Below, in pieces: positions 8,793 to 19,440 of a DNA stretch of 40,450 nt. Both the position numbers and the translations under genes were made by a program. The DNA is from Magnetococcales bacterium (lineage in GTDB: Bacteria > Pseudomonadota > Magnetococcia > Magnetococcales > Magnetaquicoccaceae): the NCBI GenBank assembly GCA_015231915.1, contig JADGAR010000032.1, forward strand, positions 1 through 40,450, in the 5' to 3' direction. Positions within the stretch are counted from its first letter, which is position 1. Every line of letters begins with the position of its first letter. The notes under the pieces are model-generated. The model did not search any database, was not told where the DNA came from, and saw only the letters and a list, made by a program, of their open reading frames with translations.

Positions 8793-9781
8793 GGGATCTC
8801 CTTCAGGGCGTTCCAGACCGATTCCGGATCGAGGGCGTCCAGGCAGGGGGGAATGGGACGCAAGGGACACTGGCGTGCGCGGCAGGGGGCCATGGGGCAG
8901 GGTCCGCTCAGGCGGCGCACGTGGCGTCCCACAATGCCGATGCGCGCCTCCGGGGTGGGGCCGTAGAGGCAGAGGGTCGGGGTGCCCAGGGCAGCGGCCA
9001 GATGCGCAGGACCGGAATCCACCGCCACCACCCCCCGCGCCCCGGCCAGGGTCGTGGCCAGCGCGTCCAGGTGCAGGCGAGGCAGAACCCGGCAAATGTC
9101 AGGGGCTGCGGCGCGGATGCGATGGGCGCGTTGCTCCTCCTCCGGATTGCCCCAGGGGAGCAGGACCGTGTTCCCCTCTGCTTGCGCGCGCCGGGCCAGG
9201 GCCTGCCAGTGGCTCTCCGGCCATTGCTTGCTGGCCCAGGTGGTGCCGTGCAGGAAGACCAGGTGCCCCCCGCCCGGCGTGGTCTGCCGCTGCCGCAAGC
9301 CGAAATCGGGGGGACCGTCGGGCGATGGGAGGTTCAAGGCGGCTGCGAACAGCAGTCGCAGCCGCTCCACGGCGTGCAGGTCGGTCGCAACAGGATGGCC
9401 GAAATGGTATAAAAAACCGCAGATCGCTTCCCTGGCGCTCGCTCGGTCGAAGCCGTGGCGGGGGGTGCCGGCCAGCAAGGCGAGGAGCGCGCTCTTGAAC
9501 AGCAGTCCCTGGGCGTCCAGGATCAGGTCGTGACGATGGCGGGTCTCTTTGGCGAAATGTCGCAGAAAGGGGATAAGACGCCAGGGGCGGGCACGCAGGC
9601 GGCGCAGGGGCACCGGGATCACCCGTTCCACGTTGGGCGCCCAGGCGCCGATACTGGTAAAATTCTCCTCGATCGCCCAGTGGACCCTGGTGGCGGGTTG
9701 CAGGCGATGGAGGTCGCAGAGCGCGGGCAGGGTGTGAATGAGATCCCCCAGGGAGGAGGTCTTGATCAGGAGGATCTTCAT
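8789..9781 (-). CDS. waaC: LPS heptosyltransferase I
   Basis: This 330-aa GT9-family enzyme probably adds the first heptose to Kdo2-lipid A at the cytosolic face of the inner membrane. The start MKILLIKTSSLGDLIHTLPAL is the classic WaaC N-terminus with the conserved GD. The C-terminal part has FLHGTTWASKQWPE and VDSGPAHLAAALGTPTLCLYGPT, the ADP-heptose binding region. The start at 9781 is fixed by the family N-terminus and by a 4-nt overlap with the lpxL-like stop. Heptosyltransferase I is preferred over II from this N-terminus and because a waaF-like gene is present at 12400. Confidence 0.9.
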   Translation of the reverse strand: MKILLIKTSSLGDLIHTLPALCDLHRLQPATRVHWAIEENFTSIGAWAPNVERVIPVPLRRLRARPWRLIPFLRHFAKETRHRHDLILDAQGLLFKSALLALLAGTPRHGFDRASAREAICGFLYHFGHPVATDLHAVERLRLLFAAALNLPSPDGPPDFGLRQRQTTPGGGHLVFLHGTTWASKQWPESHWQALARRAQAEGNTVLLPWGNPEEEQRAHRIRAAAPDICRVLPRLHLDALATTLAGARGVVAVDSGPAHLAAALGTPTLCLYGPTPEARIGIVGRHVRRLSGPCPMAPCRARQCPLRPIPPCLDALDPESVWNALKEIP

Positions 9782-10740
9782 GAGATCAGGTCGAGCACCC
9801 GTTGCGAGGGGATGGAATGGCTGGCGTTGGCAAAGGAGGCGGTCTCCTGCGGGGTCCAGAGGGATCCGTCCGGGCGGGCGCGCCAGCGGGCGTGAAGCCA
9901 GTTGTACTGCTCGGCGAACTCGTGAACCCAGGGGATGAAGGCGTCGTTGATCTTGCGGGTGAGGATGGCGACCCGGTCGGGATCGTCGCCGCCGGCAAGG
10001 GGGTCGATGGGTTCGCCGACGCGAAAGATGGCACGACCAGGCGCCTGGCGGGTGGCGATGATGGGGACCAGCGGCGTGCGGAAACGCATGGCCAGGCGCG
10101 CCGGACCGGGAAAGCACTGGGCGGGGATGCCGAGGTAGGGCGCAGTGACGGCCCCTTCGCGGGTATTGATGTCGGTCATGAAGCCCACCACCTTTTTTTC
10201 CTGGAAGGCGCGCATGATGTCGCGGGTGTTCTGGCGGGAGATCCATTCCACGCCGTAGCTGGCGCGCAACGCCATGAAGGTCTTTTCGCTCAGGGGGTTG
10301 TTGGCGTGGCGGTAGAGGATGGCGGCGGGGGAGGCGATGCTGGCCAGGCGCTTGAGTCCCGGTTCCCAGCAGCCGATATGCACGCCGCAGATGAGCACGC
10401 CGCGCCCCAGGGCGTGGGCCGCGCGCAGGCGTTCCGGGTGTTCGTCCTCGAACCCGATTTCATGGACGCGCATCCCCTCCATGTAGCTGTAGAAGATGTT
10501 CTCGAAGGCCAGGCGGGCCAGTCGCTGGCGTTGGGATTCGCTCAGATTGGGGCCGTAGACCAGGCGCAGGTTGGCGTTGGCCCAGGCCCATTCCGAGGCG
10601 AAAATGCGGGTGCCCACGCCAGAAAGCCAGCGCGCCTTGCGGTAGGCGGACGGGAACTCGCCGGAGCGGATCCAGGCGATCAGCCCCCGCAGCAGCAACC
10701 ATTCTCCCCAATGGCCGGGTGTGTGTGACAAAATCTTCAT
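9778..10740 (-). CDS. lysophospholipid/lipid A acyltransferase (LpxL/HtrB family)
   Basis: The 320-aa product belongs to the lipid A biosynthesis acyltransferase family, which transfers secondary acyl chains from acyl-ACP to Kdo2-lipid IVA at the inner membrane. The HX4D/E catalytic motif is present as HIGCWE in the LICGVHIGCWEPG segment. Later conserved parts are GFMTDINTREGAVTAPYLGIPA and the PLVPI strand. The N-terminal LLLRGLIAWI stretch is only moderately hydrophobic. It overlaps waaC by four bases and is first in that operon. Whether it adds laurate, myristate or another chain cannot be told. Confidence 0.88.
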   Translation of the reverse strand: MKILSHTPGHWGEWLLLRGLIAWIRSGEFPSAYRKARWLSGVGTRIFASEWAWANANLRLVYGPNLSESQRQRLARLAFENIFYSYMEGMRVHEIGFEDEHPERLRAAHALGRGVLICGVHIGCWEPGLKRLASIASPAAILYRHANNPLSEKTFMALRASYGVEWISRQNTRDIMRAFQEKKVVGFMTDINTREGAVTAPYLGIPAQCFPGPARLAMRFRTPLVPIIATRQAPGRAIFRVGEPIDPLAGGDDPDRVAILTRKINDAFIPWVHEFAEQYNWLHARWRARPDGSLWTPQETASFANASHSIPSQRVLDLIS

Positions 10741-10859
10741 GACATATCATGCACAAGCCCGCGCGGTTTATGCAAGTCTTGCCAGCGATCGGCTTGCGGC
10801 AAGGGTGCCTGCCGGTGTAAACTTTGATGCCATCCACCGACATCGCATGAGTCTCTTCC

Positions 10860-12410
10860 ATGAGTCTTATCCACAGCAATTTTACCCAGATATGGAGTCA
10901 ACTCCGGTTCAAGAAGCCGCATCTGCAGTATTTTCTCGAATCGATCCGCATCAGGAATCATCGCGGCATCGCCGACCTGCTGATTCCGTTTTCCTATCCG
11001 GTAACCGTGATCGCCGGACCCAATGGTTGCGGCAAATCGACCATTCTGTTCGCCTGTGCCTGCGCTTACGAGGTTCCTGGCGCGCGTACACACAGCCCGG
11101 CAAACCTCTTTCCTCATCTCAACGCGAGCAATGGCCACGCAATTGCCGATCCATTGGACAATCCGGTCTTCAGGTATCACTTTTTCGAGGATGGCGATCG
11201 GTTGTCCATGACCTGGAGCCGAAAGCGGGCCTGGAGTCGGAAGACCTATAAGGGCGGCACTCTCGTGCCACAGCCAAGGCGGGATCTGTATCTTCGCACC
11301 CTGGCCACTCTGACCAGTCCTGCCGAAGTGCGCGGCATATTGAGATTTGGCGGCAAGGATTGCACCCTGGAGGAACTGGATGCCGAATTGTTCTCCTTTG
11401 CCCACAGGGTGCTGCCATCTCGCTATCGGGGGTTCAAGCTGCTCAGTCTCAAGGGCAGGGACCTGCTGTTCGCGGAGCGCGAGGAGATCCCGGTCGCCTA
11501 TTCGGAATACCACATGTCCGCCGGGGAACGTGCCCTGCTGCGTCTTTCCAAGGAGATCGCACTGTTGCGCAATGCCTTGATCCTGATCGACGAAGTGGAA
11601 GCCGGGCTGCATCCCCACACCCAGCAGCAGATGATGCTGGAGTTGCAGCGGCTGGCGCTGCGCAATGATCTGCAAATCATCGTCACCACACACAGCCCGG
11701 TGGTTCTGGACAGCGTGCCGCCCGAGGCGCGCATCTTTCTGGAGAGGACGGCGGAGAACGTGTCGGTACAGCCCGCCTATCGGGATATCATCCAGCGCGC
11801 TTTTTACGGACGGCCCCAGAAACGGCTCTCCGTTTTGTGCGAGGATGCGGTGGCCGAGGCGGTGATCCTGGGAGTGCTGGATCGCGTCATTCCGGTCATG
11901 CAACTCACCCCCGACGATATCACGGTGGGCCGGGACACCGGGAAGGAGCAGTTTCCTCAGCATGTGGAAGCCTTGGGCAAGTTCGGCATGCTGGACGAAT
12001 TCCTGTTCGTGCTGGATGGGGATGCCCGCTCCATGACAGGCGCGCTCAATCAGGTCGCCGCACGGTTCAATTGGATCGTCAACCCGCTGTTCCTGCCCGG
12101 CACACACCCTCCGGAGGATTGGATCTACCGGACACTCGAGCAGTTCAGCGACCGTTACACCCAGGAATTGAGCGCGCCCAACCTCGCAGAATTGCTTCGG
12201 TATTTGCGCCAATACTTCGATAACGCTTCTGATCGTCCCGCCAACATCATGAAGGCCCGATTCGCTGCCCTTGCCCACGACCTGCAACGCCCACCCGAGG
12301 AGATCGCCCGTCTGGTGGCGCGCCTCGAATCGGAACGGGGGGAGATGAGGCGATTCGCCGAGGAGTTGCGCATGGCCATCTCCAACTGGCGCAGCCGCGT
12401 CAGCGGTTGA
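10860..12410 (+). CDS. OLD-like AAA ATPase with C-terminal TOPRIM-type nuclease region
   Basis: The 516-aa product has an SMC/ABC-like ATPase: Walker A GPNGCGKST (residues 53-61), signature-like MSAGERALLRLS (about 219-230), Walker B LILIDEVEAGLHPH and the H-loop VTTHSPVVLDS. The C-terminal third keeps TOPRIM landmarks: E328 in LCEDAVAEA and the DGD triad D386/D388 in FVLDGD, followed by LPGTHPPEDWIY. This is the architecture of OLD-family nucleases and of fused ATPase-TOPRIM defence proteins. No GajB-like helicase, methylase or retron partner lies beside it. It is opposite in strand to the LPS genes on both sides and overlaps the waaF 3' end by 11 bp. A role in phage defence is inferred, not shown. 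Confidence 0.8.
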   Translation: MSLIHSNFTQIWSQLRFKKPHLQYFLESIRIRNHRGIADLLIPFSYPVTVIAGPNGCGKSTILFACACAYEVPGARTHSPANLFPHLNASNGHAIADPLDNPVFRYHFFEDGDRLSMTWSRKRAWSRKTYKGGTLVPQPRRDLYLRTLATLTSPAEVRGILRFGGKDCTLEELDAELFSFAHRVLPSRYRGFKLLSLKGRDLLFAEREEIPVAYSEYHMSAGERALLRLSKEIALLRNALILIDEVEAGLHPHTQQQMMLELQRLALRNDLQIIVTTHSPVVLDSVPPEARIFLERTAENVSVQPAYRDIIQRAFYGRPQKRLSVLCEDAVAEAVILGVLDRVIPVMQLTPDDITVGRDTGKEQFPQHVEALGKFGMLDEFLFVLDGDARSMTGALNQVAARFNWIVNPLFLPGTHPPEDWIYRTLEQFSDRYTQELSAPNLAELLRYLRQYFDNASDRPANIMKARFAALAHDLQRPPEEIARLVARLESERGEMRRFAEELRMAISNWRSRVSG

Positions 12411-13410
12411 GGGCGTTTTTCACCTGTTCCGGGGTGATCTTGCGCAGGCAATCCAGATGGCCGAGGGGGCACTCCCGTTTGAAGCAGGGGGCGCAGGGCA
12501 GGCCCAGCGAGAGAATTTGCAGTCGTCCACCCAGGGGCGGGGTGTGGGCCGGATCCGAGGAGCCGAAGATGGCCACCCCGGGTCGATCCAGCGCGGCGGC
12601 CACGTGCATCAGGCCGGAGTCGTTGGTCACCACCGCATCGGCCAATGCCAGCACGTCCAGCGCCTCTTCCAACGCGATCCTGCCCGCCAGATTGATCGCT
12701 CCGGGCATCTCCCCGGCCAGGATCTCTTCGCCCAGGTCGGTCTCCTTGGCGGACCCCAACACCACCACCCGCCACCCTTCCATCGTCATGTCGTGCGCCA
12801 GACGGGTGAAAAAATCCACGGGCCAGCGTTTGGCCGGGCCGTATTCCGCGCCGGGACACAAGGCCAGCAGGGGGGCGGTGGTTTCCGTTCCGGCGAATCT
12901 GGCGAGGATGGCGTGTCCTGCCTCCGGGTCGGCGTGCAGGCGTGGCTGTGGCAGTGGATTCGGCAGGGAGGCGCCCTGGGGACGCGCGAGGACAGAAAAA
13001 CGATCCACGGTGCGCGGCCAACGCCGTTTGTCCAGTCGGCGTGCGTCGTTGAGCAACCCGAAGCGCATCTCGCCCACGAAGCCGGTGCGCCTGGGGATCG
13101 CGGCAAACCAGGGTATCAGGGCCGATTTCAGGGAGTTGGGCAACACGATGGCCTGGCCGTATGCGCCACGCAACCCGCGTCCCAGATGCCAGCGCGTCGC
13201 CAGGCCCAACTCCCCATGCCCGACCGGCAACGGGATCGCCCGCCGCACTTCCGGCATGCGCGCCAGCAGAGGCAGGCTCCAGGGCGGGGCCAGGACATCG
13301 ATGGCCACTCCGGGTTGATCTTGAGAGAGGATCCGCAACATCACCTGCGCCATCACCATGTCCCCCACCCAGGAGGGACCGATCACCAGAACCGCATCCC
13401 CTCCGGTCAT
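12400..13410 (-). CDS. waaF: LPS heptosyltransferase II
   Basis: The 336-aa GT9-family product has N-terminal VLVIGPSWVGDMVMAQ, the WaaF signature PGAEYGPAKRWP, and the ADP-heptose site NDSGLMHVAAALDRPGVAIFGSSDPAHTPP. The C-terminal Cys cluster (LPCAPCFKRECPLGHLDCL) is common in this family. It adds the second heptose of the inner core. The start at 13410 gives a 4-nt overlap with the hldD stop. It follows hldE-hldD in one operon, so ADP-heptose supply and use are coupled. Its last 11 bp overlap the convergent ATPase gene. Confidence 0.94.
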   Translation of the reverse strand: MTGGDAVLVIGPSWVGDMVMAQVMLRILSQDQPGVAIDVLAPPWSLPLLARMPEVRRAIPLPVGHGELGLATRWHLGRGLRGAYGQAIVLPNSLKSALIPWFAAIPRRTGFVGEMRFGLLNDARRLDKRRWPRTVDRFSVLARPQGASLPNPLPQPRLHADPEAGHAILARFAGTETTAPLLALCPGAEYGPAKRWPVDFFTRLAHDMTMEGWRVVVLGSAKETDLGEEILAGEMPGAINLAGRIALEEALDVLALADAVVTNDSGLMHVAAALDRPGVAIFGSSDPAHTPPLGGRLQILSLGLPCAPCFKRECPLGHLDCLRKITPEQVKNALNR

Positions 13411-16212: not shown

Positions 16213-16541
16213 TGCGGGATCTTCCGGCGGAAGCGTACCTGAGGGGGGTAAGAGGCGCCGTCACGGGAAGAGACACTGGGAAAACTGGTGGCCAAGGTGC
16301 ACCGGTGGTTGCGATGATGGAGAGCGGTCAATTCCGCTTCATCAAGGATCTGGTGGCCCAGGAGCAGATCGACGATGCCGGTCTGGCCCGAGTGCGGCGC
16401 CTGACCCTGCTCGCTCTGGACATTATCGTCATCCTGGACGGGCGGCAGCCGGACGTGCTGACGTGGCGGGAGTTGAAGAATCCGTTTCCGATGGAATGGG
16501 AGCAGCAAAGGGAGAAGTGGGGGATGACTCATCCCGGCTGA
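16213..16541 (+). pseudogene. frameshifted remnant of a recombinase-associated C-terminal region
   Basis: From 16261 one frame reads EETLGKLVAKVHRWLR and stops at 16315. The next frame then reads MMESGQFRFIKDLVAQEQID from 16314 and continues through RLTLLALDIIVILDGRQPD and FPMEWEQQREKW to 16541. A single missing base at 16313/16314 separates the two halves. From memory the joined text resembles C-terminal segments found with site-specific recombinases in phage and island regions; this is not verified. No N-terminal catalytic domain is present. Its 3' end overlaps the RAYT gene by 13 bp on the other strand. Confidence 0.55.
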
Positions 16542-17203
16542 TCGGGCTTGGTGGGCTTGCGTCCTGGCTTTTGGGGCTTGAGAATCCGTTTCAGTTGGGT
16601 TTCCAGTTTGTCCAAAAACAGTTCACCGCCCAGGGGTCTTCCTGTTTGTTCGTGTCTGCGCAGGGTTTCCATGGTTTCATCAGCCAACCGGCTGGCCAGA
16701 AAGAGAGACCAATCCGGGACCAACTCCAGCATGGGTTTGGTTTTGACCAGCCTGTCGTCTTGCCCAGACAAATGAGCGCGTGCGCTACTCCATGGGTATT
16801 CTTCAGGCAAGGCGGTCAAACGTGCCCTTACCGGATTGAGTTCGACGTACCGGGTAGCGGCCAGAAGGTGCTCTTCGTCCAGAGGGAACGAAGCAAACCG
16901 GCCTTGCCAAAGATGCCCTCGCCATTTTTGGCGGAAATTGACATGCCGGGTGTAACGCCGGTGCGCCTCGCCGATGGCCAACCGCATGCTCTCCTCCGTC
17001 CGAGGCACAGCAATCAAGTGGACATGGTTGGGCATCAAACAGTAGGCCCAGATCTCCACCCCGAAACGCTCGCACCCCTCTGCCATCAGATCGAGATAGA
17101 CCTGATAATCCTGCTCCACAAAAAAGGTCTGCTGCCTCCGATTGCCGCGTTGGGTGATGTGATGCGGCAATCCAGGAGCAACAACGCGAGCGATTCTGGC
17201 CAT
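16529..17203 (-). CDS. REP-associated tyrosine transposase (RAYT, Y1_Tnp/IS200-like)
   Basis: This 224-aa single-strand HUH transposase-like protein has N-terminal PGLPHHITQRGNRRQ, the HUH motif H60-V-H62 in MPNHVHL, and catalytic Y119 in ATRYVELNPVRARL followed by the WSSARAH segment. The C-terminus is Lys/Pro-rich. RAYTs are single-copy, domesticated relatives of IS200/IS605 transposases that act on REP-type palindromes. The gene begins about 24 bp from repeat array A (17227 onward), so the array lies at its 5' side. All catalytic residues are present, so it may be active. Confidence 0.92.
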   Translation of the reverse strand: MARIARVVAPGLPHHITQRGNRRQQTFFVEQDYQVYLDLMAEGCERFGVEIWAYCLMPNHVHLIAVPRTEESMRLAIGEAHRRYTRHVNFRQKWRGHLWQGRFASFPLDEEHLLAATRYVELNPVRARLTALPEEYPWSSARAHLSGQDDRLVKTKPMLELVPDWSLFLASRLADETMETLRRHEQTGRPLGGELFLDKLETQLKRILKPQKPGRKPTKPDQPG

Positions 17204-17226: not shown

Positions 17227-17606
17227 CAATAAGGGAAATAGGTATGGTGTCACCGGATTTCGGAGGTAAGGTATGGTGTCACCGGATTTCGGAGGTATGG
17301 TGTCACCGGATTTCGGATTTCGTCCCCAATAAGGGAAATAGGTATGGTGTCACCGGATTTCCAATAAGGGAAATAGGTATGGTGTCACCGGATTTCGGAT
17401 GCAATAAGGGAAATAGGTATGGTGTCACCGGATTTCGGATGGTGTCACCGGATTTCGCGAAATAGGTATGGTGTCACCGGATTTCGTAAATAGGTATGGT
17501 GTCACCGGATTTCGTCCCTGTCACCGGATTTCGTCCCTGGTGTCACCGGATTTCGTCCCGGATTTGGGACGGATTTCGGGATTTCGGTTTGGTGTCCCCG
17601 GATTTT
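17227..17606. repeat. repeat array A between the RAYT gene and the kinase
   Basis: The core TGTCACCGGATTTC occurs about eleven times exactly, plus one late variant with TGTCCCCGGATTTT. The longest unit is CAATAAGGGAAATAGG followed by TATGG and the core (about 37 bp), seen near 17227, 17327, 17361 and 17402. Other units are truncated and spaced 20-35 bp apart. There are no unique spacers of constant length, so it is not CRISPR. The array starts next to the RAYT start and ends 2 bp before the kinase stop. Its units match the reverse complement of those in array B. Confidence 0.9.
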
Positions 17607-17608
17607 GA

Positions 17609-18925
17609 TCATTTCTTTAAATGAGAAAAATTATTAACTTTATCTAATAAATCTCCAATTGCATCAGAGTGCTGATCGCTGCATACATCATTAACTAAAA
17701 GATTGTTAAGTATGCTTCTTAGATCGTGATAATACCATTTATCTTTATTTTCAAAATTTTTCAAATTATTAAAAAATTTTAACAATTCCTCTGTTGTGCA
17801 TGCATGTGATTCTTTGTCATACTCCTTAGATGAAAGAATTAACGCGTCTCGAATCTCTGGATTTCCAAACCATTTTTCACTGTATTGCTTCTCGAATCCA
17901 TATTCAAGAGCAGATGAAACAATAAACTGATAATTACTATTAGATTTGTGACTAATTATTATTAAAGATGCTATTAAAGATGCAACAGCATTCCTTCTTT
18001 TGTCTTCATCTACATTAACAAGATCCTTTATCCTTGACAAAATGGCACGCTTCTTTCCGCTAGATAACGTTTGGTAACGATTTGCATCCATGTCACGCAA
18101 TGTAGCTTTAATATCAGAAAGACTACCACTCGAAAAAATATCAGCCATTGATGTGTATGGTTGCAAAGATTTTGATAATGCAAAAATAAAATCATCTATA
18201 TTGTTTATCCTATTTTTTCTTGGCTGTAAGCATTTTTTTATCAGTTCATCAATCGCAGTTGGAATTGTGTCATTAATGTCATTTAGTGGAGCATATTCAC
18301 CGATAGATGGTCTTGATCCAGACAGACATTCATAAAGAACTACTCCTAAGGCATAAATATCATCTGAAGGTTCTGCAGACTCTCCTTTTTCTTGTTCTGC
18401 GGACATATATCCTGGCGAGCCTAAAGTTGTAATTGTGGGATATGTTTCAAGGTCTGTCTTGCTAAGAGATATCCCAAAATCTACCAAGTAGTAAGATTCA
18501 GAAACAGATGAATGAATGATATTTGATGGCTTGACGTCTCTATGTATAATATTATTGCTATGCGCACACCTAAGAGCGGAACATATATCTATCAACATTG
18601 ACTTTGCTTGGTCCAAGGACATCGGTCCTCTCTCAACAAGATATTTCCTTAAATTTAAACCGTTAATTAGCTCAAAAATGATTTTAAACTCAGATGGTTC
18701 TGTTAATATGTCATAAATCGCAGGAACGTTTGGGTGTGATAATTTTGCAAGAGCTTTTGCCTCTCTAATAAATCTCGCTTTATCACTCTCAGATGGAGCT
18801 GATTTAAATAAGGGGTCAAGAGTTTTGATCGCGACATCTCTATCAAGCAATATGTCTTTTGCCTTAGAAATCTTTCCGAATCCTCCTTCCCCAATATTCT
18901 CTTCAATAATATTGAATCGAGACAT
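17609..18925 (-). CDS. eukaryotic-type serine/threonine protein kinase, low GC
   Basis: The 438-aa product has a complete kinase domain (about residues 6-265): glycine loop IGEGGFG, K34, E55, catalytic loop IIHRDVKPSN (D130, N135), DFG at 149-151 and SAEQ in place of APE. Residues about 270-438 form a soluble, probably helical region I do not recognise. There is no membrane segment, PASTA or extracellular sensor, so it is cytosolic. GGAG lies 8 nt before the ATG at 18925. The gene is strikingly AT-rich beside GC-rich neighbours, a sign of transfer. It stands alone between the two inverted repeat arrays with no adjacent phosphatase. A defence or toxin role is possible but unproven. Confidence 0.9.
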   Translation of the reverse strand: MSRFNIIEENIGEGGFGKISKAKDILLDRDVAIKTLDPLFKSAPSESDKARFIREAKALAKLSHPNVPAIYDILTEPSEFKIIFELINGLNLRKYLVERGPMSLDQAKSMLIDICSALRCAHSNNIIHRDVKPSNIIHSSVSESYYLVDFGISLSKTDLETYPTITTLGSPGYMSAEQEKGESAEPSDDIYALGVVLYECLSGSRPSIGEYAPLNDINDTIPTAIDELIKKCLQPRKNRINNIDDFIFALSKSLQPYTSMADIFSSGSLSDIKATLRDMDANRYQTLSSGKKRAILSRIKDLVNVDEDKRRNAVASLIASLIIISHKSNSNYQFIVSSALEYGFEKQYSEKWFGNPEIRDALILSSKEYDKESHACTTEELLKFFNNLKNFENKDKWYYHDLRSILNNLLVNDVCSDQHSDAIGDLLDKVNNFSHLKK

Positions 18926-19164: not shown

Positions 19165-19440
19165 CGCAATCGGGGGACACCATACACATTTCCCTTATCA
19201 CATTTCCCTTATAGCTATAAATTTAATCCGAAATCGGGGGACACCATCCGAAATCGGGGGACACCATACACATTTCCCTTATAGCTATAAATTTAATCAA
19301 AATCGGGGGACACCATACACATTTCCCTTAATCAAAATCGGGGGACACCATACACATTTCCCTTATAGCTATAAATTTAATCAAAATCGGGGGACACCAT
19401 ACACATTTCCCTTATGGAAATCCGGGGACACCATACGCAA
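19165..19440. repeat. repeat array B, inverted relative to array A
   Basis: CGGGGGACACCAT occurs six times, plus one variant CCGGGGACACCAT near 19422. The core is usually followed by ACACATTTCCCTTAT and, in three units, by AGCTATAAATTTAATC (48-bp full unit). The reverse complement reads ATAAGGGAAATGTG, TATGGTGTC, CCCCGATTT. This corresponds block by block to array A (ATAAGGGAAATAGG, TATGGTGTC, ACCGGATTT). The array lies exactly between the two 168-bp repeats. Confidence 0.9.

What the first reader, a model, noticed from the sequence alone, without database searches (positions are those of the whole stretch)
10860..12410. OLD-like ATPase-TOPRIM gene splits an LPS heptose operon
hldE-hldD-waaF and lpxL-like-waaC-GT2 share strand and function and both use 4-nt overlaps, yet a single opposite-strand ATPase with TOPRIM landmarks (E328, D386, D388) lies between them. 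Fused ATPase-TOPRIM proteins act in phage defence (OLD, GajA, PARIS-like). Placement inside the LPS core genes, which encode common phage receptors, is notable. No partner gene is visible, so it may be a stand-alone effector.
Basis: partly seen in the sequence, partly recalled or inferred. Interest (0 to 1): 0.58.

Follow-up and report, generated by a model that had tools for sequence, protein, structure and literature searches.

The report
Solo phage-defence ATPase-nuclease in LPS operon
A single gene that looks like a stand-alone anti-phage protein (an ATP-driven switch fused to a nuclease) has been inserted into a cell-envelope sugar operon in two closely related Magnetococcales species, and its relatives include a plasmid protein reported to block phages.

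Summary
The + strand ORF 10860-12410 (516 aa) encodes an ABC/OLD-type ATPase followed by a TOPRIM domain, with E328, D386 and D388 invariant across 14 homologues. It lies between waaF and the lpxL-like gene of a heptose/lipid A operon that is uninterrupted in 20 of the 22 relatives where both genes share a contig; only the window genome and its sister species carry the insert, at the same site. Orthologues in three more Magnetococcales genomes sit elsewhere, so the LPS placement is one landing site, not a conserved functional link. No partner gene travels with it. The best library match is HEC-04 (135 bits), and the closest tested relative is IbfA of plasmid R64, which scores about the same on that model (141 bits) and is reported to abort phage infection. 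Best explanation: a stand-alone abortive-infection effector, an ATPase sensor controlling a TOPRIM nuclease, in a new deep clade of the HEC-04/IbfA-like family. It is not Gabija, PARIS or a retron, and the Pfam OLD TOPRIM model does not hit it. One unusual point: the two sister alleles are about 90% identical except in codons 73-200 (55% at protein level), perhaps an exchanged or fast-evolving sensor segment. New member of a known kind.

The parts
10860..12410 (+). ATPase-TOPRIM gene, 516 aa, HEC-04/IbfA-like
11016..11042 (+). Walker A (residues 53-61, GPNGCGKST)
   Evidence: invariant G53 N55 G56 G58 K59 T61 in 14 of 14
11076..11459 (+). codons 73-200 between Walker A and ABC signature: 0.69 nt identity to the sister allele against 0.88-0.92 in the rest of the gene
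11517..11528 (+). ABC signature SAGE (residues 220-223)
   Evidence: G222 invariant, E223 nearly invariant
11574..11594 (+). Walker B with E245 (residues 239-245)
   Evidence: E245 nearly invariant
11826..12023 (+). TOPRIM core, residues 323-388 (E328; D386, D388)
12093..12116 (+). residues 412-419, LPG...PE motif after the TOPRIM DxD; L412, P413, P418, E419 invariant
10741..10859 (.). 119-nt gap between divergent lpxL and ATPase; would have to hold promoters for both; no sigma-70 consensus found
12400..13410 (-). waaF, last gene of the upstream half of the split operon
9778..10740 (-). lpxL-like lipid A acyltransferase, first gene after the insert

Best explanation
The gene encodes a stand-alone anti-phage effector of the HEC-04/IbfA-like family. 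It was acquired as a single gene and landed between waaF and lpxL, most simply in the common ancestor of the window species and its sister. The N-terminal ABC-type ATPase (Walker A, SAGE signature, Walker B, H278) should bind ATP, dimerise and hold the C-terminal TOPRIM nuclease (E328, D386, D388, Mg-dependent) inactive. A phage-made trigger would be sensed in part by the segment between Walker A and the signature, where OLD proteins carry an insert in the ATPase. The freed or rearranged TOPRIM domain would then cut nucleic acid (DNA as in OLD and Eco8, or tRNA as in AriB) and abort infection. Shown: domains, conserved residues, insertion, solo occurrence, family. Inferred: ATP gating, trigger sensing, substrate, anti-phage activity. 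The operon split is a side effect; lpxL presumably has its own promoter in the 119-nt gap.
For: PADLOC best hit is HEC-04 over residues 17-438, E 6.7e-40; in this genome it is the only strong HEC-04 match, the other 5 of 6 being weak ATPase hits. R64 IbfA, a homologue of the IbfA reported to abort phage infection (PMC12111858: abstract, passages and section 2.5 read), scores 141 bits on the same model against 135 for the window. Across 14 homologues 24 columns are invariant, including the Walker A residues and E328, D386, D388. TOPRIM: hhalign of 14 TOPRIM segments against P2-Old-type proteins is in register, E 6e-4 but probability only 28.7; the family profile hits GajA across the ATPase/TOPRIM join and TsOLD 6p74 best of all, E 4e-23; 6p74 is the third VIA row, Z 16.9, 316 residues, rmsd 6.5, model residues 25-443. 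Insertion: the waaF-lpxL gap is 1662 and 1666 nt in 2 genomes and 21-205 nt in 20 (22 of 48 genomes informative). Patchy: 5 of 48 genomes of the order at four different sites; lower GC (0.594) than the operon genes (0.618-0.690). Relatives are single genes on plasmids, several near restriction-modification or integrase genes, and on IMG/VR viral contigs. A PD-T4-6-like kinase lies just beyond the operon.
Against: No phage test exists for this clade; identity to R64 IbfA is 24% over 390 alignment columns. HEC-04 proper scores 626-719 bits, the window 135, so function is carried over a long distance. Pfam OLD-like_TOPRIM does not hit the C-terminus at E 0.1, and the second Glu of the OLD EGxxE motif is missing (A332). 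The structure models are weak (mean pLDDT 59-60) and the C-terminal 100 residues are unreliable. No promoter-like site was found in the 119-nt gap. The IbfA authors argue that the family may also have other roles.
Confidence: 0.7

Rival explanations
1. The gene is a regulator or quality-control ATPase of LPS synthesis, placed there for that function.
For: Position inside the heptose/lipid A operon in two species; in G018 the N-terminal piece lies beside sugar-biosynthesis genes (named by reading).
Against: 20 of 22 informative genomes keep waaF-lpxL together without it; G032 and G014 keep it at unrelated sites; opposite strand; nearest families are defence families.
Confidence: 0.07
2. It is a chromosomal DNA-repair or genome-maintenance ATPase-nuclease, like the archaeal OLD protein Cran1 that serves the cell cycle (PMC12796447, search listing and start of abstract only).
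For: Intact and under purifying selection; the IbfA authors propose co-option outside defence; the gene sits by a ruvB-like gene in G014 (named by reading).
Against: Patchy in the order (5 of 48), changing sites, plasmid and viral-contig relatives.
Confidence: 0.15
3. It is a passenger gene without function, simply carried along.
For: No promoter-like site in the 119-nt gap; solo gene.
Against: Both alleles open over 516-517 aa with all catalytic residues; dN/dS 0.27.
Confidence: 0.08

Closest known systems
IbfA (plasmids R64 and pUA1135, PMC12111858)
   Same: single gene, 518 aa, ATPase then TOPRIM, about the same score on the HEC-04 model (141 vs 135 bits)
   Different: 24% identity; on conjugative IncI1 plasmids beside a ProQ-like gene; the window clade has an insert in the TOPRIM (around GRDTGKEQ)
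HEC-04 (Hma-embedded candidate 04; Payne et al. preprint 10.1101/2024.01.29.577857, not read, cited in PMC12111858)
   Same: best model hit; ABC ATPase fused to TOPRIM; invariant residues shared
   Different: canonical members score 626-719 bits; separate clade with 100/100 support; no Hma genes among the flanking genes scanned
Class 1 OLD (P2 Old, TsOLD 6p74)
   Same: solo gene, ABC ATPase then TOPRIM; 6p74 aligns 316 residues over model 25-443
   Different: no Pfam OLD-like_TOPRIM hit, second Glu absent, outside the branch of four OLD-type proteins, which is 100/99
PARIS (AriA/AriB) and Gabija GajA
   Same: ATPase-TOPRIM logic; weaker matches (AriA 81 bits, GajA 61 bits)
   Different: no separate AriB (DUF4435) and no GajB helicase beside it
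Retron type I-B ATPase-TOPRIM (PDLC02914)
   Same: second-best PADLOC model, 86 bits
   Different: neighbours are waaF and lpxL, no reverse transcriptase next to it

Membership tests
HEC-04 (PADLOC PDLC04149) | best match to the HEC-04 profile, ATPase and TOPRIM covered | tested here: met
   135 bits, residues 17-438; but canonical members reach 626-719 bits
HEC-04 (PADLOC PDLC04149) | lies within an Hma (helicase-methylase-ATPase) locus | tested here: not met
   the adjacent genes are LPS genes; R64 IbfA has no such genes listed beside it either
IbfA/HEC-04-like family (broad) | solo ~500-aa ATPase-TOPRIM with E-D, DxD and LP....PE | tested here: met
   14 of 14 aligned proteins
IbfA/HEC-04-like family (broad) | protects against phage | not testable with these tools
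   needs plating
Class 1 OLD | single gene without partner | tested here: met
   four sites, no shared neighbour:
Class 1 OLD | OLD-like TOPRIM (Pfam PF20469) | tested here: not met
   no hit at E 0.1; a distant in-register match by hhalign
Gabija GajA | adjacent UvrD-like GajB | tested here: not met
   neighbours waaF and lpxL
PARIS | AriB/DUF4435 TOPRIM | tested here: not met
   no DUF4435 hit in the C-terminus; hhalign with one DUF4435 protein, E 0.14
Retron type I-B | reverse transcriptase adjacent | tested here: not met
   neighbours waaF and lpxL
Retron type I-B | retron non-coding RNA | not tested
   no Rfam search run

The most novel reading that the evidence does not exclude
Codons 73-200, between Walker A and the ABC signature, form an exchangeable phage-sensing module. 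The two sister alleles at the same chromosomal site kept 88-92% identical catalytic parts but swapped or rapidly rebuilt this segment (55% identical), so they would answer to different phage triggers: a single-gene immune receptor with a swappable sensor in an ATPase-TOPRIM protein.
Probability: 0.2. Interest if true: 0.55.

Novelty: new member of a known kind. Interest (0 to 1): 0.34.

Why it matters
The 2023 OLD review (PMC10568477, passages read) states that no solo bacterial OLD protein was known to give broad phage defence. HEC-04/IbfA-like proteins are candidates for that, and this clade adds a deep chromosomal branch with two natural alleles at one site that differ mainly in one segment, a ready pair for a sensor-swap test in a laboratory host.

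Tried and rejected
One search covered the minus-strand translation by mistake; one search repeated it correctly. Viral-contig scans with the Magnetococcales alignment, IbfA and HEC-04 found no relatives. The scan with A2 gave 9 loci; I kept L117 and L118 as family members and left out the other 7 (L119-L125) by reading their length, sequence start and matched stretch. From (12 loci) L128, L132, L135, L136, L137 went into alignment A5; L129-L131 are copies of L128, L133 of L117, and L134, L138, L139 were left out as short or partial. The phage collection has no match. The C-terminal 200 residues hit no Pfam family, and the TOPRIM profile alone has no convincing PDB sequence hit (best rows are PDZ domains at E 0.011, taken as chance; primase at 0.44-0.50). 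Hypervariability of the middle segment as a family trait was rejected: across the other pairs with at least 38% identity the divergence ratio mid/rest is 0 to 2.0 (2.0 for one plasmid pair), and only the window/sister pair is 4.2. Recombination against rapid evolution is undecided: dS is raised too (0.76 against 0.19-0.45), but so it is in comparisons with G032. An LPS-linked role was set aside because of changing sites. Repeats flanking the insert were sought and none framing it was found; there is a 13-nt tandem at the start codon.

Dropped rows: of the 48 genomes of the order, 11 have waaF and lpxL on different contigs, 11 have only one of the two and 4 neither; these say nothing on the insertion. 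An earlier count said 21 and 19 genomes; the correct counts are 22 and 20. G018 carries the gene in two pieces at contig ends and was left out of alignments A1 and A2.

Full report
What is there. The + strand ORF at 10860-12410 encodes 516 residues. Pfam finds AAA_15 and AAA_21. The neighbours on the - strand are hldE, hldD and waaF on one side and a lipid A acyltransferase, waaC and a GT2 on the other. The overlaps are 4 nt at hldD/waaF, lpxL/waaC and waaC/GT2 and 13 nt at hldE/hldD. The ATPase runs against the operon; its tail overlaps that of waaF by 11 nt, and 119 nt separate it from lpxL.

Insertion. In the 48 genomes searched in the order, lpxL was found in 35 and waaF in 42. In 22 genomes both lie on one contig: the gap is 1662 and 1666 nt in the window genome and G027, and 21-205 nt in the other 20, among them 5 genomes of the same genus. 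In three of these (G030, G031, G033) the whole order hldE-hldD-waaF-lpxL-waaC was checked directly, 3 of the 5. In several relatives the junction is tight or overlapping.

Distribution. Orthologues occur in 5 of 48 genomes: the window genome, G027 (81%), G032 (66%), G014 (47%) and G018 (two pieces at contig ends, 61% and 48%). In a sample of 398 genomes of the phylum, 7 have a match at E 1e-25, the same five plus two partial ones. The sites differ: waaF|lpxL in two, after a Crp/Fnr-like gene in G032, between ruvB-like and lpd-like genes in G014, and between a sugar gene cluster and a peptidase-like gene in G018. These last names are by reading, not from a profile search. No neighbour is shared, so the protein probably works alone.

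Family. The best defence model is HEC-04 (135 bits), then retron I-B ATPase-TOPRIM (86 bits). HEC-04 is the best model for all 10 proteins, for R64 IbfA and for the four viral-contig proteins. HEC-04 proper (two plasmid proteins) scores 626 and 719 bits; the window clade, IbfA and the others score 110-171. In a tree of 25 proteins the window clade (4), the HEC-04 clade (2) and the clade of IbfA with plasmid and viral-contig proteins (4) each have 100/100 support, and all are split from four OLD-type proteins by a branch of 100/99; several long branches meet, so the order among clades is open. The IbfA paper (PMC12111858: abstract, passages and section 2.5 read) reports that IbfA of pUA1135, 97.5% identical to that of R64, reduces plating and burst size of a P22-like phage, and cites HEC-04 as active against T4 and T5; I did not read the HEC-04 preprint.

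TOPRIM. Pfam does not recognise the C-terminus. Three other lines support it. First, E328, D386 and D388 are invariant in 14 of 14 proteins. Second, profile comparison with P2-Old-type proteins aligns E328 with the Glu of VEG and the DxD with DxD (E 6e-4, probability 28.7, so weak alone), and the family profile reaches GajA through this region. Third, both structure models order strands and helices as 323-327, 330-347, 354-358, 362-374, 381-385 (381-386 in the second), the TOPRIM order as I recall it, and TsOLD aligns over residues 25-443. The models are of low confidence overall. The second Glu of the P2 Old motif is Ala here; an invariant Asp follows E328 instead.

Sister alleles. Over 10,975 aligned columns from purD to hldE, the most divergent 390-column stretch is 11071-11463 inside this gene (31% mismatch; the worst outside the gene is 19%). 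Shuffling codons within the gene never reached the observed cluster (121 mismatches against a maximum of 92 in 5000). Codons 73-200 have dN 0.317 and dS 0.76; the rest dN 0.04-0.065 and dS 0.19-0.45. In other clades this segment is not unusually variable. In TsOLD a dimerisation domain is inserted in the ABC ATPase (PMC10568477, passages read); that the window segment corresponds to it and senses phage is inference.

Mechanism. The most likely reading is a solo abortive-infection switch: ATPase dimer as sensor, TOPRIM as effector. Domain content and catalytic residues are shown; ATP gating, trigger and substrate are inferred from OLD and retron Eco8 (and listings) and PARIS (PMC12409363, passages read). 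The probability that it is anti-phage is put at 0.7.

Verdict. A real, well-read observation; a new, deep chromosomal branch of a known kind. Its place in the LPS operon is accidental as far as the evidence goes.

Noticed in passing
window 17609-18925 (-): Ser/Thr protein kinase gene of 34% GC in a 61% GC window, best PADLOC match PD-T4-6 (193 bits), just upstream of the heptose operon; possibly a second defence gene.
   Followed up: partly
L002 12413-14583 (G027): Upstream of hldE the sister species instead carries an AriA-like AAA_15 ATPase followed by a DUF4435 protein; the DUF4435 gene is in 1 of 11 genomes of the genus: a PARIS-like pair at a variable spot.
   Followed up: partly
window 16529-17203 (-), 17240-17559 and 19185-19436: REP-associated tyrosine transposase (below its cut-off) beside arrays of short repeats with the core GTGTCACCGGATTTC, 10 exact copies, and another repeat array on the other side of the kinase gene.
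   Followed up: no
IMG/VR loci L117, L118, L126, L127, L128, L132, L135-L137: Solo-looking HEC-04/IbfA-like genes on viral contigs; four of them (L117, L118, L126, L127) score 134-168 bits on HEC-04: possibly prophage cargo. Their neighbourhoods were not read.
   Followed up: partly
L108 3950-7526 (Burkholderia glumae plasmid): A HEC-04-like gene followed on the same strand by a second ATPase with a weak, sub-threshold OLD TOPRIM match.
   Followed up: no
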